Shown here piece after piece: positions 6,381 through 12,129 of a stretch of 64,000 bases of DNA. Under the pieces are notes generated by a model. It worked only from the letters and a program-made list of their open reading frames with translations, was not told the origin of the DNA and ran no database searches. Source of the stretch: Georgenia satyanarayanai (GTDB lineage Bacteria > Actinomycetota > Actinomycetes > Actinomycetales > Actinomycetaceae); assembly GCF_009193135.1 (NCBI RefSeq), contig NZ_VUKC01000003.1, positions 62,001 to 126,000 of the forward strand. Direction: 5' to 3'. The number at the start of each line of letters is the position of its first letter. Position 1 is the stretch's first letter. A program made the translations under genes and the position numbers.

Positions 6381-6416
6381 ATGACCTCCCACCAGCCGGC
6401 GCCCGTCCGTGCGTGA
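6381..6416 (+). other. Short ORF overlapping the rnz start
   Basis: An 11-residue frame (MTSHQPAPVRA) starts at an ATG 8 nt after a -10-like hexamer and stops at 6414-6416, overlapping the first codons of rnz (GTG at 6409). It could be a leaderless leader peptide that delivers ribosomes to rnz by reinitiation. Alternatively it is the displaced original start of rnz, since removing one copy of a tandem CGTG repeat at the junction fuses the two frames. Confidence 0.35.
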
Positions 6417-7302
6417 GCTCGTCGTCCTCGGCACCGCCTCCCAGGTGCCCACGCGCGCCCGCAACCACAACGGCTACCTGCTCCTGTGGGACGGGCGGGG
6501 TTACCTCTTCGACCCCGGGGAGGGCACGCAGCGGCAGATGACCCACGCCGGGGTGTCGGCCACGCAGGTCCACCACATCTGCCTCACGCACGTCCACGGC
6601 GACCACTGCTACGGCCTGCCCGGCGTGCTGTCGCGGATGGTGCTCGACGGCGTCACCCACCCCGTCCACCTCCACTACCCGGCGAGCGGGGAGGAGGTGG
6701 TCCGCGCGCTCGTGTCCGTCGCGACGCCGGGGCTGGACCTGCGGCTCCGGCCGCACGGGGCCGCCGGGGAGGTGGCCCCGGGCCTGGAGGTCCGGCCGCT
6801 GCACCACCGGGTGGAGACCTACGGCTACCGGCTCGTCGAGCCGGATTCGCGCACCCTCCTGCCCGAGCGGCTCGCCGCCGCCGGCCTCAGCGGCCCCGAC
6901 GTCGGCCGCCTCCAGCGCGCGGGCCGGCTGGGCGGCGTGGCGCTCGAGGACGTGAGCGTGCCGCGCCGCGGCCAGCGCTTCGCCCTCGTCATGGACACCG
7001 CCCCGTGCACGGGCGCCGAGGAGCTCGCCGACGGCGCCGACCTCCTCGTCGCCGAGTGCACCTTCGCCGACGAGGACGCCGCGCTCGCCCACGAGTACCG
7101 CCACCTCACCGCGGGGCAGGCGGGTGCGCTCGCCGCCACCGGGGGAGCGGGCACCCTCGTGCTCACCCACTTCTCCTCCCGGTACCCGGACCTCGAGCCG
7201 CTGCGGGAGCAGGCGAGGGTGACGGCGGGACGGGCCGCCGTCGTCCTCGCGCTCGACCTGGACCGGGTGGCGATGCCCCGGCGGCGCGCAGCGGCCCGCT
7301 AG
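6409..7302 (+). CDS. rnz: Ribonuclease Z / MBL-fold metallohydrolase
   Basis: A 297-residue metallo-beta-lactamase-fold protein of the ElaC/RNase Z type. It has the zinc motif HVHGDH (H61, H63, D65, H66) and DPGEGTQRQM upstream. The later ligands sit in VMDTAP, in the HEYRHLT loop and in LTHFSSRY. RNase Z cuts the 3' trailer of tRNA precursors. The GTG start gives the normal family N-terminus (MRELVVLGTASQVPT), but it has no Shine-Dalgarno sequence and overlaps the end of a short upstream ORF. The 3' end overlaps the convergent amidase gene by 4 bp. The tRNA role is by family; related arylsulfatase-like MBL proteins are the alternative. Confidence 0.8.
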   Translation: MRELVVLGTASQVPTRARNHNGYLLLWDGRGYLFDPGEGTQRQMTHAGVSATQVHHICLTHVHGDHCYGLPGVLSRMVLDGVTHPVHLHYPASGEEVVRALVSVATPGLDLRLRPHGAAGEVAPGLEVRPLHHRVETYGYRLVEPDSRTLLPERLAAAGLSGPDVGRLQRAGRLGGVALEDVSVPRRGQRFALVMDTAPCTGAEELADGADLLVAECTFADEDAALAHEYRHLTAGQAGALAATGGAGTLVLTHFSSRYPDLEPLREQARVTAGRAAVVLALDLDRVAMPRRRAAAR

Positions 7303-9098
7303 CCGAGCGGGCCGTAGAGCGCGGGCGAGGTGCGCGCCTGCGTCGCCTGCTCGAAGGCGTAGGCGAGACCGAGGAGCGTGCCCTCGGCGTAGTCCCGCCC
7401 GAGGAGCTCGAGGTTGACGCCGGCGCCGGGCACCGTGCCGTCCGCCTCGGTGGCCTGCCCCATCGGCACGCTGACCGCGGGCATCCCGGTGTTGGGGCTC
7501 AGCCGCAGGTTCTGTCCCTGGGTCCCGTAGGGCGTACCGGTGGGGTAGACGAGCGCGTCGAGCGCGTGCTCCTCAAGGAGCCCGGTGACGAGCGCCTGCC
7601 CCTGCGCCAGTGCCTGCGTGTGACTGCCCTCGGGTCCGGCCCACGCCTCGTAGGTCTCCTCGCTCACCGCGGCCCGCTGCTCGTAGCTGCGCTGGCGGGA
7701 GGTGACGTAGTGGCCGGTGGCGAGGATGTCGTCGATGGAGCGCGCCGTCACCTGCGGCGCGAGGTGGTTGGCGACGTAGCCCTCGAGGTCGTGGCGGAAC
7801 TCGTTCGTGCTGCCGCTCGGCTCCCCGAGGACGGCGGGGAGCTCAGCGGGCGCCGCGAGCTCGACGACGGTCGCGCCCCGGTCCTCGAGGGTGGCGACGG
7901 CCTGCGCGAAGAGGCGGGCGGTCGTCGGGTTGGTGCCGACCATGGACGGCAGGTAGCCGATCCGTGCGCCGTCGAGTGCTTCGGCGTCCAGCGACGAGGC
8001 GAAGGAGGCAGGCACCTTGCCGGCCTGCTCACCGGTGACCGGGTCCGCCGGGTCGACGCCGACGACGGCGTCCAGCGCGAGGGCGGCGTCGGTGACGCTG
8101 CGGGTGATCGGGCCCGCGGTGTCCTGGCTCAGCGCGAGGGGGATGATGCCGTCGCGGCTGACGAGGCCGACGGTCGGGCGGATCCCGACGAGCTGGTTGT
8201 AGGACGCCGGCACCCGGATCGAGCCGCCGGTGTCCGTGCCGAACCCGATCCCGGCGAGGTTGGCGCTGATCGCCGCGCCCGTGCCGCCGCTGGACCCACC
8301 GGCGGTGCGGCTCGTGCTGTGCGGGCTCGCGGCGAGGAGCGTCTCACCGGGAGCGACGCCCGCGGAGAACTCCGAGACGAAGCCGAAGGCGAACTCGTCC
8401 AGGCTCGTCTTGGCGAGGACGACGGCGCCCTCGTCGCGCAGCCCCTCGACCATGAAGGCGTCGGTGCCGGTGAGGTTGTCCTCCCAGCAGCCGCAGCCCC
8501 CGGTGGTCGGCATGTCGCGGGTGTTGACGTTGTCCTTGACGGCCACCGGCACACCGAGGAGCAGGCTCGTCATGCCGCCCGACGCGCGCCGCTCGTCCGC
8601 GGCGGCCGCGGCGGACAGGGCAGCCTCGCTCGTCGCGATGACCGAGTTGAGCGGCCGCCCGTCGGGGTCGACGAGGGTGCGGTCGTACGCCGCGATCCGC
8701 TCGAGGTACTCCTCGGTGAGAGCGACGGACGTCGTCACGCCGGCGTTCATCGCGGCCTGCATGTCGAGGACCGAGGCCTCGACGAGCTCGAAGGGGCCGT
8801 CGTCGTAGACCATCCGCTGGGAGACGGCAGCGAGGTCGGCGACGGTGAGGGCGCCGTCGCCGTCGGTGTCCGCCCGGGCACCCCACTCGGCGACGTCGGC
8901 GGGGGAGCCGAGGTGGTCGGCGACGAGGTCGAGGTCCGCCGCGGTCACCTGACCGTCACCGGTGAGGTCGAGCTCGGCGTGGAAGGGCGGCAGGACGAGC
9001 GTGTGGGCCTCGAGCGGCTGCGCCTGGACGGCGGCGCCCGTGAGGACGAGCGCGCCGGCGGCGGGGACGGCGGCGAGGGCGCGGCGGCGCGTGCTCAC
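7299..9098 (-). CDS. Exported amidase with N-terminal dockerin-like module
   Basis: A 599-residue protein. An alanine-rich signal peptide covers about residues 1-27. Two Ca-binding EF-loop repeats follow, [13 protein letters not shown] (about 44-56) and [13 protein letters not shown] (about 77-89), each followed by a short helix. This is the duplicated layout of a type I dockerin. Residues 105-599 form an amidase-signature enzyme with catalytic K188, the cis-serine in GGSSGG (267-272) and nucleophile S293 in GTDTGGS, so it should hydrolyse an amide outside the cell. The substrate is unknown. The GTG start overlaps the stop of the cohesin gene (GTGA), so the two are translationally coupled. 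A non-dockerin EF-hand pair is the alternative reading of the N-terminal module. Confidence 0.85.
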
Positions 9099-9841
9099 AG
9101 CGCACCTCCCGTCCGGCGACGGACGAGGACCGCGGTGCCACCGAGGGCGGTCAGCGCGGCCGCGGCCAGGACGAGGAGGGAGGCGTCGAGGCCGGTCGAG
9201 GGGAGGGAGCCGCCGCCCGAGGCAGCGGGCGGGGCGGGGGCCGGGGTGTCGTCGTCGGACGCTCCGTCGTCGTCCGCGTCGGTGGGCGTGGGCTCCGGCT
9301 CGGTGGCCGTGGGCTCCGGCTCGGTGGGCTCGGGGTCGGTCGGGGTGGGCTCGGGCGCGTCGACGGTGATGTCCGCGCTCACGGCGGCGGGCAGGGTCGT
9401 CGTCGTCCCGTCGGCGCCGACGAGCTCGACGGACACGGCGACAGTCGTCGTGCCGGGGCCGACGACGTCGAGCTGCACCCCCGCGGCGAGGTCACCCGCC
9501 AGGGCGGGGGAGCTCCCGAGGCGGCTGTGGACGACGGTGGCGCCCGGCTCGGCGAGCTCGGTGCTGTCGAAGCCGCCCGCCGGGCCGGTGGCGCTGTCAG
9601 GCACGACGGCGAGGACCTCGGGGTCGACCTCGACGGTGAGGGCGTAGGCGTAGACGTCCGCGGCGTCACCGAGCTCGAGGCTGGCGGTGATCGTGTCCCC
9701 GACGGCCGCGGTGGCCGGCACGGCGAGGCTCAGGCCCGTGGTGTCCGGTGCCGCGAGGGCGGGTGCGGCGCCGAGCACGAGCACGCCGGCGCACAGGGGC
9801 GCGGCGAGCACTGCTCGACGTGGGCGGGGTCTGGGGGGCAT
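9095..9841 (-). CDS. LPXTG-anchored cohesin-domain protein
   Basis: A 248-residue protein. The signal peptide covers residues 1-31. Residues 33-161 form one beta-rich domain with cohesin hallmarks: VGDTITASLELGDAADVYAYAL, then VDPEVLAVV, then a late GPGTTTVAVSVEL strand. A Pro/Thr/Glu spacer (162-205) is followed by the sorting signal LPSTG (213-217), a membrane helix (219-240) and an RRR tail. Sortase should link it to the cell wall. It precedes, and overlaps by 4 bp, the gene for an amidase with a dockerin-like module, so it probably displays that enzyme on the surface. No sortase gene is in the window. Start chosen at ATG 9841, where the signal peptide begins. Confidence 0.85.
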   Translation of the reverse strand: MPPRPRPRRAVLAAPLCAGVLVLGAAPALAAPDTTGLSLAVPATAAVGDTITASLELGDAADVYAYALTVEVDPEVLAVVPDSATGPAGGFDSTELAEPGATVVHSRLGSSPALAGDLAAGVQLDVVGPGTTTVAVSVELVGADGTTTTLPAAVSADITVDAPEPTPTDPEPTEPEPTATEPEPTPTDADDDGASDDDTPAPAPPAASGGGSLPSTGLDASLLVLAAAALTALGGTAVLVRRRTGGAL

Positions 9842-9976: not shown

Positions 9977-11131
9977 TCACTCGCAGCCCACGCCGTCCCC
10001 GTCGCCGTCCAGGTGGCGGGCGTAGCCGGAGTCACCGGCGCGGACCGGTGCGGCGCCGGCGGCCCGCGCCTCCGCGCAGCTCGCGTAGGGGGCGTCCCTG
10101 GCCGGCGCGCCGTCCTGGGTGCGCGTGGGTGCGGTGCGGACCTCGCGTGGCCCCGCGCCCGCCGGCAGCGGCTGGTCGGGGCAGTCGCCGAGCACCCGCA
10201 CCATGGCGTCCTGCTCGGCCCGCGTCACCCACAGGCCGTAGGAGTGCTTGACGCCCACCTGCCGTGCGACGTACGCGCAGCGGGACGAGCGGTTCGGGGG
10301 CAGCCAGGTGGCGGTGTCACCGTCCCCCTTCTGCCCGTTGAGCGGGCCGGCGACGGCGAGGAGGTTGAGGGGGTCGTTGGCGAAGCGCACCCGGGTGTCG
10401 GTGTCCCACTGCTGCGCCCCCTTCTGCCAGGCGTCCGACAGCGCGACGACGTGGTCGATCTGGACCGCGGTGCTCGTGTCGTTGCCGCGGGCGAAGGCGA
10501 TCGTCTCCCCGCTGAAGGGGTCGGCCAGCGTCCCGGACGTGACGACGCAGTCCCGGGTGCCGGGCCGGAAGGTCAGCCCGGTGAGGTCACGGGCGAGGAT
10601 GTCGTTGCGGGTGTCGCAGCCGTTGTGGTCGGTGTCCACCCAGCCCCTGCCGAAGAGGTCGCGGTCGTAGCCCTTGCGCGGGGCGCGGCCCTTGACCTCG
10701 AGCTCGCGGGCCGCGGTGAGGGCGGCGCCGGGCGCGCCCTGCTCGTCGTCCGCGCTCGCCGGCGGCGCCGCGGTGGCGGTCGGTGGCGGGGTGGCCGCCC
10801 GGTCCGGGGCCGGCGTGGAGGTTGCGGGCGCGGTGGTCGCGCGCGGAGGTGACACGTGGTCGGCCGGCCCCGCGACAGCTCCGCCGGTGAGGAGGAGGAC
10901 GACCCCCACCCCGACGGCGGCGCCCAGCCCCTTGCGGCCGATCGGTCCGGTGCGACGGCGGCGGCGCGACAGGGCCCAGCCGGCGGTGACCACGAGGTAG
11001 AGACCGCCGAGGACGAGCGGGAGGGCAGCGTCACCCGCGAGCGCGCCGACCAGGACGGCAGCGGCGAGCCCGATGACCCAGGCGGTGGGAACTCGCGGGC
11101 GGGCAGGGGAGGGGGGTGCGGCGTCGTCCAC
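9977..11131 (-). CDS. Exported or membrane-anchored HNH (DUF1524) nuclease with excalibur domain
   Basis: A 384-residue protein. The N-terminal 80 residues hold two or three membrane helices, then a Pro/Thr/Ala-rich spacer. Residues about 140-310 form a DUF1524/GmrSD-C type HNH domain with DHVVALSDAW (HNH His), NDPLNLLAV and an N/K-rich third block. Residues about 350-384 form an excalibur Ca-binding domain ending in DGDGDGVGCE, with the paired cysteine in SCAEARAAG. The family consists of extracellular or surface DNases of actinobacteria. The GTG at 11131 was chosen because the hydrophobic region follows soon after; its ribosome-binding site is weak (AGAGAG). The role could be nutrient release, DNA uptake or competition. 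Confidence 0.75.
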   Translation of the reverse strand: MDDAAPPSPARPRVPTAWVIGLAAAVLVGALAGDAALPLVLGGLYLVVTAGWALSRRRRRTGPIGRKGLGAAVGVGVVLLLTGGAVAGPADHVSPPRATTAPATSTPAPDRAATPPPTATAAPPASADDEQGAPGAALTAARELEVKGRAPRKGYDRDLFGRGWVDTDHNGCDTRNDILARDLTGLTFRPGTRDCVVTSGTLADPFSGETIAFARGNDTSTAVQIDHVVALSDAWQKGAQQWDTDTRVRFANDPLNLLAVAGPLNGQKGDGDTATWLPPNRSSRCAYVARQVGVKHSYGLWVTRAEQDAMVRVLGDCPDQPLPAGAGPREVRTAPTRTQDGAPARDAPYASCAEARAAGAAPVRAGDSGYARHLDGDGDGVGCE

Positions 11132-11183
11132 GGTGTCTCTCTGGTGATCGGCAGGTGACGACCTCAGTATCGGCCCTCCCCGA

Positions 11184-11206
11184 CGCGCCGGGATTGTGCC
11201 GGCGCG
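11184..11206 (-). terminator. Hairpin after the serine hydrolase gene
   Basis: An 8 bp GC-only stem (11184-11191 with 11199-11206) and a 7 nt loop lie just after the stop of the hydrolase gene, on its downstream side. There is no U-tract, as usual for high-GC actinobacteria. It may end that transcript before the HNH nuclease gene. Confidence 0.4.
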
Positions 11207-11214
11207 CCGGCAGC

Positions 11215-12129
11215 TCAGTGCGTGGCCAGCTGGGGAAGCACCTCGTCCCACACCGCGCGGAGGATGTCGTTGGCCGCACCCTCGTGGTGGGCGGTGACGG
11301 TGACGACCGCCCGCTGACGGGGCAGCACCACGGAGAACTGGCCGTACTTCCCGTCGGCCCGCCAGGCGCCGTCGACCGTGCAGCGCCACACCTGGTATCC
11401 GTAGCCGGCCATGGACTCCGGGTCGGGGAAGCCCGCGGTCTCGACGACGTCGGTGTGCATCGCGGCGACGAAGTCCGCGGGGACGAGCTGGTCCTCGCCC
11501 CAGCGGCCCTCCTGGAGGAGCAGCCGGCCGAGGCGCGCCAGCTCGCTCGTGCGCAGCTGCAGGCCGACCGCCCCGAGGCTGTAGCCCTGGGGGGAGCGCA
11601 ACCACTGCGGGTTGCCGATCCCGAGCGGGTCGAAGAGTCGGGGCACGAGGTAGTCCCGGAGGTCCTGCCCGCTCACGGCGTGCACGATCCGGCTCAGCGC
11701 GTAGCTGCACGCGTTGGTGTACATGAACCGGTCCCCGGGCGGCGCGGCGAGCTCGGCGGCGAGGAACGCGCCGAGGAGGTCGGGCTCCTCGCCGCGGACC
11801 GGCGTGTGCCAGGAGCAGGTGGTGCCGCTCGTCATCTGGAGCAGGTGGCGCACCGTCATGGCCTCGACGCCGTCGGCGTGTAAGACCCCGGGAAAGAACT
11901 CGACGACGGCGTCGTCGAGCCCGAGCAGGCCCTCCGCCTGCGCGATCCCGACGGCGACGGCGACGACGGTCTTGGACGCCGAGTAGACCTCGACGGTGTC
12001 GTCGTTCCGGAAGCGGTGCTCGACCGGCTCGTGCCCCTCCCGGTGGAGGTGGACACCGTAGACGCCGAGGTTCCGCTCGGCGTTGCGCAGGCGGAATCCG
12101 TGGAGCACGGCGGCGTCCGTCGGGGGCAT
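11215..12129 (-). CDS. Serine hydrolase, beta-lactamase/class C penicillin-binding protein family
   Basis: A 304-residue protein with the SxxK motif in YSASKTVVA (about residues 50-58), the second motif Y-x-N in MYTNACSY, and a late DGKYGQF segment in the position of the KTG/HTG motif. Length and order fit PF00144 serine hydrolases, which cleave esters, D-peptides or beta-lactams. No signal peptide is visible, so a cytoplasmic esterase or peptidase is more likely than a periplasmic lactamase. The ATG start at 12129 is clear. The substrate cannot be named. Confidence 0.8.
   Translation of the reverse strand: MPPTDAAVLHGFRLRNAERNLGVYGVHLHREGHEPVEHRFRNDDTVEVYSASKTVVAVAVGIAQAEGLLGLDDAVVEFFPGVLHADGVEAMTVRHLLQMTSGTTCSWHTPVRGEEPDLLGAFLAAELAAPPGDRFMYTNACSYALSRIVHAVSGQDLRDYLVPRLFDPLGIGNPQWLRSPQGYSLGAVGLQLRTSELARLGRLLLQEGRWGEDQLVPADFVAAMHTDVVETAGFPDPESMAGYGYQVWRCTVDGAWRADGKYGQFSVVLPRQRAVVTVTAHHEGAANDILRAVWDEVLPQLATH

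What the first reader, a model, noticed from the sequence alone, without database searches (positions are those of the whole stretch)
7299..9841. Wall-anchored cohesin and dockerin-like amidase encoded as a coupled pair
Seen: one gene encodes signal peptide, a single cohesin-like domain, Pro/Thr spacer and LPSTG sorting signal. The next gene, overlapping by 4 bp, encodes an exported amidase whose N-terminus carries two EF-loop repeats spaced as in a type I dockerin. Known: cohesin-dockerin binding assembles cellulosomes, and isolated cohesins and dockerins occur outside cellulosomes. Inference: this is a minimal one-enzyme surface complex that shows an amidase on the wall of an actinobacterium. 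I know of no described amidase display system of this type.
Basis: partly seen in the sequence, partly recalled or inferred. Interest (0 to 1): 0.85.

Follow-up and report, generated by a model that had tools for sequence, protein, structure and literature searches.

The report
Wall-anchored cohesin holding a dockerin amidase
Two overlapping genes encode a cell-wall anchor and a secreted amide-cutting enzyme that carry matching halves of the clamp that builds cellulosomes; the pair is kept together in dozens of soil and plant bacteria, so these bacteria very probably clip one enzyme onto their surface this way.

Summary
Confirmed and extended. On the minus strand, 9095-9841 encodes signal peptide, one cohesin (Pfam 25.7 bits, cut-off 24.1), Pro/Thr spacer and LPSTG signal. 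7299-9098, overlapping it by 4 bp (GTGA), encodes an exported amidase-signature enzyme with an N-terminal type I dockerin (29.7 bits, cut-off 22.9). They are the only cohesin and the only dockerin found in the 3.44-Mb genome. The AlphaFold cohesin model matches cohesin crystal structures best, first those of Clostridium perfringens. The pair is not peculiar to this genome. In 396 genomes of the order, cohesin and dockerin-amidase profiles hit the same 19 genomes, plus two weak partial cohesin hits. Of 70 related loci with an upstream partner, 67 keep the exact 4-bp overlap. Linkage survives gene-order inversion and a change of anchor, and two lineages fuse the modules into one protein. One genome that lost the cohesin has also lost the first EF loop and the signal peptide. 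Calcium ligands and catalytic residues are invariant or nearly so in 72 pairs. Most partners end in LAxTG, and this genome encodes a class E sortase. Best reading: a one-enzyme, calcium-dependent display module on the wall. Binding, wall anchoring and substrate remain untested. New variant of a known kind.

The parts
9095..9841 (-). Gene 1: wall-anchored cohesin protein, 248 aa (signal peptide ~1-30, cohesin ~31-161, Pro/Thr/Glu spacer ~162-210, LPSTG 213-217, hydrophobic segment, RRR tail)
   Evidence: translation; Pfam Cohesin and Gram_pos_anchor above cut-offs; AlphaFold2 domain pLDDT ~91-98; Foldseek
9407..9715 (-). Cohesin domain match (protein residues 43-145)
   Evidence: PF00963 25.7 bits; profile-to-PDB best match 2jh2, E 1.1e-8
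9191..9205 (-). LPSTG sorting signal (residues 213-217)
   Evidence: LAxTG in 57 and LPxTG in 10 of 72 relatives
7299..9098 (-). Gene 2: exported dockerin-amidase, 599 aa, GTG start
   Evidence: Pfam
8814..8969 (-). Type I dockerin (residues 44-95), two EF loops D44-D55 and D77-D88
   Evidence: PF00404 29.7 bits; calcium ligands D44, D48, D55, D77, D88 in 72/72, D79 69/72, D81 70/72
7440..8720 (-). Amidase-signature catalytic domain (residues 127-553); K188, S269/S270, S293
   Evidence: PF01425 279.7 bits; nearest solved structures peptide amidase 5ac3/1m21; catalytic residues invariant in 72/72
9095..9098 (-). 4-bp GTGA overlap of gene 1 stop and gene 2 start; GGGAGG lies 6 bases before the GTG
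   Evidence: same -4 overlap in 67 of 70 related loci

Best explanation
A two-gene, one-enzyme surface-display module. Gene 1 is exported and its sorting signal lets a sortase (probably class E) link it to the cell wall, leaving one cohesin at the end of a flexible spacer. Gene 2, probably translationally coupled through the 4-bp overlap, exports an amidase-signature hydrolase whose N-terminal EF-hand pair binds calcium and docks into that cohesin, so the enzyme stays on the wall. The enzyme most likely hydrolyses small extracellular carboxamides, possibly peptide C-terminal amides as its nearest characterised relative does, for nitrogen or carbon uptake. Shown by computation: domains, fold of the cohesin, invariant ligand and catalytic residues, genetic linkage and co-loss. 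Inferred: the binding itself, calcium dependence, wall linkage, substrate.
For: Domains above curated cut-offs. Cohesin model with a confident domain; ranks 1-14 of the Foldseek list are all cohesins, headed by C. perfringens 2jh2, 2w1n and 2vo8 and including archaeal 2xdh; a profile search agrees. Only cohesin and only dockerin in the genome. In 396 genomes of the order, 19 have the dockerin-amidase and the same 19 have the cohesin (plus two partial hits at E 3.5e-4); Fisher p about 2e-30, which ignores shared ancestry. 18 of 19 lie on one contig, with 360-531 bp between domain matches in 14 and 1.6-1.7 kb in the 4 where the cohesin follows. 67/70 loci keep the -4 overlap. No other neighbour is recurrent: the best other cluster appears in 9 of 68 loci at varying positions. 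Gene order is inverted in Isoptericola, in two genomes of genus g108 and in family f45. Two single-chain fusions in opposite order: L094 cohesin-dockerin-amidase, L127 dockerin-amidase-cohesin-LAVTG. L081 lost the cohesin from its whole genome and lacks EF loop 1 and the signal peptide. Class E sortase encoded, 254 bits, cut-off 160; class E sortases use LAXTG (PMC5148588). Weak co-divergence of cohesin and dockerin beyond the amidase: partial r 0.115, Mantel p 0.008.
Against: No binding data. No complex could be modelled. The dockerin part of the amidase model has low confidence (pLDDT about 44-58). The window cohesin is only just above the Pfam cut-off; 7 of 72 cohesins and 10 of 72 dockerins are not matched at E <= 0.01. 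In Isoptericola and family f45 the cohesin partner has no sorting signal, so wall anchoring is not universal. G857 has a cohesin without a detected dockerin-amidase.
Confidence: 0.82

Rival explanations
1. The two proteins do bind, but the purpose is assembly or stabilisation rather than wall display: the cohesin is an activating or stabilising subunit of the amidase and the anchor is incidental.
For: The cohesin persists where the sorting signal is absent (Isoptericola L126, family f45 L145-L149) and in the L094 fusion, which lost the anchor.
Against: 70 of 73 loci with upstream DNA have a partner ending in an LxxTG-type signal (the partner was partly recognised by that signal, so the count leans that way), and the signal is kept in g108 and in the L127 fusion. 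Family f45 partners carry extra C-terminal repeats that could be another surface attachment; Big_3_5 was matched below its cut-off in the related protein of G857.
Confidence: 0.1
2. The EF-hand pair is a structural calcium module of the amidase and the neighbour is an unrelated adhesin; the genes are linked by chance or shared regulation.
For: Dockerin-like EF-hands occur outside cohesin systems (own knowledge); the partial co-divergence signal is weak.
Against: Exact co-occurrence, retained linkage through inversions, two fusions, joint loss in L081.
Confidence: 0.05
3. The pair is a remnant or outpost of a larger cellulosome-like assembly.
For: The same two domain families are used.
Against: One cohesin and one dockerin in the whole genome and no multi-cohesin scaffoldin; one match per genome in the family survey.
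Confidence: 0.03

Closest known systems
Ruminococcus flavefaciens ScaE, a cell-surface cohesin that binds group 4 dockerins (PMC5934362)
   Same: One cohesin on a surface protein tethers dockerin-bearing proteins, including single proteins.
   Different: ScaE belongs to a large anaerobic cellulosome and serves several partners with type III modules; here there is one cohesin and one dockerin in the genome, a coupled gene pair, an amidase, an actinobacterial host, mostly LAxTG. That ScaE has a sortase signal is from my own knowledge.
Non-cellulosomal cohesins of Clostridium perfringens glycoside hydrolases (2jh2, 2w1n, 2vo8)
   Same: Closest in fold and by profile; cohesin-dockerin use outside cellulosomes.
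   Different: There the cohesin sits on the enzyme and joins glycoside hydrolases to each other (own knowledge); here it sits on a wall anchor and the enzyme bears the dockerin. Identity in the structural alignment is only about 17-20%.
Non-cellulosomal cohesin of Archaeoglobus fulgidus (2xdh) and archaeal cohesin/dockerin proteins (PMC9012536)
   Same: Isolated modules outside cellulosomes.
   Different: Archaeal; different partners.
Peptide amidase Pam of Stenotrophomonas maltophilia (1m21, 1m22, 5ac3)
   Same: Same amidase-signature fold; 34% identity in the Foldseek alignment; catalytic residues align.
   Different: The aligned Pam chains begin at the amidase domain, so no dockerin; the invariant CxC (C202, C204) after the catalytic lysine is absent from Pam.
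Cellulosomes and the 2024 genome survey of them (PMC11557425)
   Same: Same interaction modules.

Membership tests
Cohesin (PF00963) | Profile match above curated cut-off | tested here: met
   25.7 bits against 24.1; 65 of 72 relatives at E <= 0.01
Cohesin (PF00963) | Beta-sandwich cohesin fold | tested here: met
   pLDDT about 91-98 over the domain; ranks 1-14 all cohesins, TM-score 0.77 to 2jh2_A by target length
Cohesin (PF00963) | Binds a dockerin | not testable with these tools
   No complex modelling or assay; indirect support only, from linkage, fusion and co-loss
Dockerin type I (PF00404) | Profile match above curated cut-off | tested here: met
   29.7 bits against 22.9; 62 of 72 at E <= 0.01
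Dockerin type I (PF00404) | Two EF-hand-like loops with calcium ligands at positions 1, 3, 5, 12 | tested here: met
   D44, D48, D55, D77, D88 72/72; T46 71/72; D79 69/72; D81 70/72
Dockerin type I (PF00404) | Confident predicted dockerin structure | tested here: inconclusive
   Helices at 53-62 and 86-95 are predicted but pLDDT is about 44-58 in this part
Amidase signature enzymes (PF01425) | Ser-cisSer-Lys catalytic residues and AS fold | tested here: met
   279.7 bits; K188, S269, S270, S293 72/72; Foldseek top hits Pam
Sortase-anchored wall proteins | LPxTG-like motif, hydrophobic stretch, positive tail, and a sortase in the genome | tested here: met
   Gram_pos_anchor 24.8 bits against 20; class E sortase NF033747 254 bits
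Sortase-anchored wall proteins | Covalent attachment to peptidoglycan | not testable with these tools
   Needs wall fractionation or a sortase deletion
Cellulosome | Multi-cohesin scaffoldin with several dockerin enzymes | tested here: not met
   One cohesin, one dockerin in the genome
Peptide amidase (Pam) | Hydrolysis of peptide C-terminal amides | not testable with these tools
   Only fold and catalytic residues shared; no NCBIfam amidase model reached its cut-off

The most novel reading that the evidence does not exclude
A widespread, undescribed family of minimal cohesin-dockerin systems in Actinomycetes: one wall-linked (or otherwise surface-held) cohesin dedicated to one amidase, evolving by gene-order inversion, anchor replacement and fusion, including single-chain dockerin-amidase-cohesin proteins that could self-dock or chain head to tail.
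Probability: 0.7. Interest if true: 0.72.

Novelty: new variant of a known kind. Interest (0 to 1): 0.64.

Why it matters
Cohesin-dockerin pairs are the classic device of anaerobic cellulose degraders. Here the device appears as a compact, patchily kept module for displaying a single non-carbohydrate enzyme on actinobacteria of soil, plants and animals. It offers native pairs for surface display or affinity tools, and natural experiments (fusions, inversions, co-loss) for asking why a cell docks an enzyme rather than anchoring it directly. It also shows that surveys demanding multi-cohesin scaffoldins overlook such systems.

Tried and rejected
Peptidoglycan amidase: rejected, the enzyme is PF01425. 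Cellulosome: rejected, single modules. Function from neighbours: no recurrent third gene across 68 loci. Apparent exceptions were followed: L026 has its cohesin downstream; L094 is a fusion; L081 lost it genome-wide; L023, L024, L028, L042 and L059 lie at contig ends and their genomes do contain a cohesin; L055 and the L085 fragment remain unresolved. L037 and L070 have the cohesin in a shifted frame. Order-wide cohesin search with the full-length alignment A4 failed twice; the trimmed alignment A7 worked. RNA structure at the gene junction is no better than shuffles; no sigma-70-like promoter or terminator found. A strict dockerin regular expression missed 24 of 68 dockerins and was dropped for profile counts. 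Papers searched with no description of the pair; most subscription journals, and Peer et al. 2009 on non-cellulosomal modules, were not readable, so a prior mention there cannot be excluded.

Full report
Observation. Pfam places Cohesin (25.7 bits, cut-off 24.1) and Gram_pos_anchor (24.8, cut-off 20) on the first, and Dockerin_1 (29.7, cut-off 22.9) and Amidase (279.7, cut-off 27) on the second. In the 3.44-Mb genome there is one cohesin and one dockerin, these two.

Fold. With 72 homologues the cohesin region (about 31-161) is predicted with pLDDT about 91-98 as a beta sandwich. The first fourteen PDB matches are all cohesins: C. perfringens non-cellulosomal ones first, then Archaeoglobus and type II cohesins of Acetivibrio; a sequence profile gives the same leaders. 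The amidase core matches peptide amidase Pam. The dockerin segment is modelled with low confidence, so its assignment rests on the profile and on its ligands.

Conservation. Eighty loci from named genomes encode relatives of the amidase: Microbacterium, Curtobacterium, Cellulosimicrobium, Cellulomonas, Leifsonia, Mycetocola, Frigoribacterium, Herbiconiux, Oerskovia, Demequina, Sanguibacter, Georgenia, Oceanitalea and others. The scan used the motifs DMQAAMN and R[MI][VI]YDDGP, the second of which lies at the end of the dockerin, so this set leans towards dockerin-bearing enzymes. Seventy have an upstream gene with a sorting-type C-terminus, and 67 of these overlap the amidase by exactly 4 bp. 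In 72 aligned pairs, the calcium aspartates D44, D48, D55, D77 and D88 and the catalytic Lys and Ser residues are fixed; the sorting motif is LAxTG in 57 and LPxTG in 10. The genome of the window encodes one clear class E sortase, the class that uses LAXTG (PMC5148588). Contig lengths identify three of the closest relatives as Georgenia satyanarayanai (two) and Oceanitalea stevensii, so the window is from that group.

Co-occurrence. Independent profiles were run over the same 396 genomes of the order. The dockerin-linker profile hits 19; the cohesin profile hits those 19 plus two weak partial matches (Fisher p about 2e-30, which does not allow for shared ancestry). In 375 genomes of the class, 9 have the dockerin-amidase; 8 of them reach the Pfam cohesin model and the ninth (G367) was found with the family-specific profile. 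The system is therefore sparse (about 5% of the order) but almost strictly paired; the one unpaired cohesin seen is G857.

Natural experiments. Gene order is inverted, with the cohesin downstream, in Isoptericola (L126, no sorting signal), in two genomes of g108 (LASTG kept; L124, L125) and in family f45, where the cohesin protein ends in repeats instead of a sorting signal. L094 (Microbacterium sp. 2FI) is one open frame: signal peptide, cohesin, dockerin, amidase, without the anchor; its dockerin falls below the Pfam threshold but both loops are readable. L127 is one open frame in the other order: dockerin, amidase, cohesin, LAVTG. L081 (Microbacterium sp. MYb45) has no cohesin in its genome, and its amidase lacks the first EF loop and a signal peptide. 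No third gene travels with the pair. Cohesin and dockerin divergence correlate slightly beyond what the amidase explains (partial r 0.115, p 0.008), a weak result.

Mechanism. Shown: the parts, their conservation and their linkage. Inferred from established knowledge of the families: sortase links the cohesin protein to the wall; calcium folds the dockerin; the two bind; the enzyme is held outside the cell. The substrate is open. Pam-like carboxamide hydrolysis is the most likely class of reaction, but no amidase model in NCBIfam reached its cut-off and context gives no hint.

Known or new. Surface cohesins that tether single dockerin proteins exist in Ruminococcus flavefaciens (PMC5934362) and non-cellulosomal pairs exist in clostridia and archaea (PMC9012536). 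I found no description of this amidase pair, or of a dedicated one-enzyme system in actinobacteria, in the open library. The large 2024 survey excluded it by its criteria (PMC11557425), and a 2015 paper on Cellulosimicrobium cellulans F16 reports no cohesin or dockerin in that genome (PMC4562250), although four other genomes labelled C. cellulans carry the dockerin-amidase. Non-open literature could not be checked. Verdict: new variant of a known kind, well supported by comparison, untested at the bench.

Noticed in passing
window 7299-7302: The amidase gene's stop codon overlaps the stop codon of the convergent tRNase Z-like metallo-hydrolase gene (6409-7302, +) by 4 bp.
   Followed up: no
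window 9977-11710 (-): Open frame just upstream of the pair whose C-terminal half matches GmrSD_C and an Excalibur calcium-binding domain: a probable membrane-tethered or exported nuclease. It is not a recurrent neighbour in other genera.
   Followed up: partly
window amidase residues C202 and C204 (8487-8495, -): A CxC motif a short way after the catalytic lysine is invariant in 72 relatives and absent from peptide amidase Pam; possible metal site or redox switch.
   Followed up: no
L144:6371-7525 (-): A cohesin plus Ig-like protein in a genome (G857) without a detected dockerin-amidase; the conserved RLGxSP-type motif is changed, as if released from constraint.
   Followed up: partly
L085: A 3.6-kb contig filed under Stenotrophomonas maltophilia P13 carries an actinobacterial-type dockerin-amidase; probably contamination.
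   Followed up: no
L037 (Demequina sediminis): The cohesin gene is split by a frameshift in the RLGTSP region; sequencing error or decay.
   Followed up: partly
L023, L052, L058, L071: Four genomes labelled Cellulosimicrobium cellulans have the dockerin-amidase, whereas a 2015 paper on strain F16 (PMC4562250) states that no cohesin or dockerin was found in its genome.
   Followed up: no
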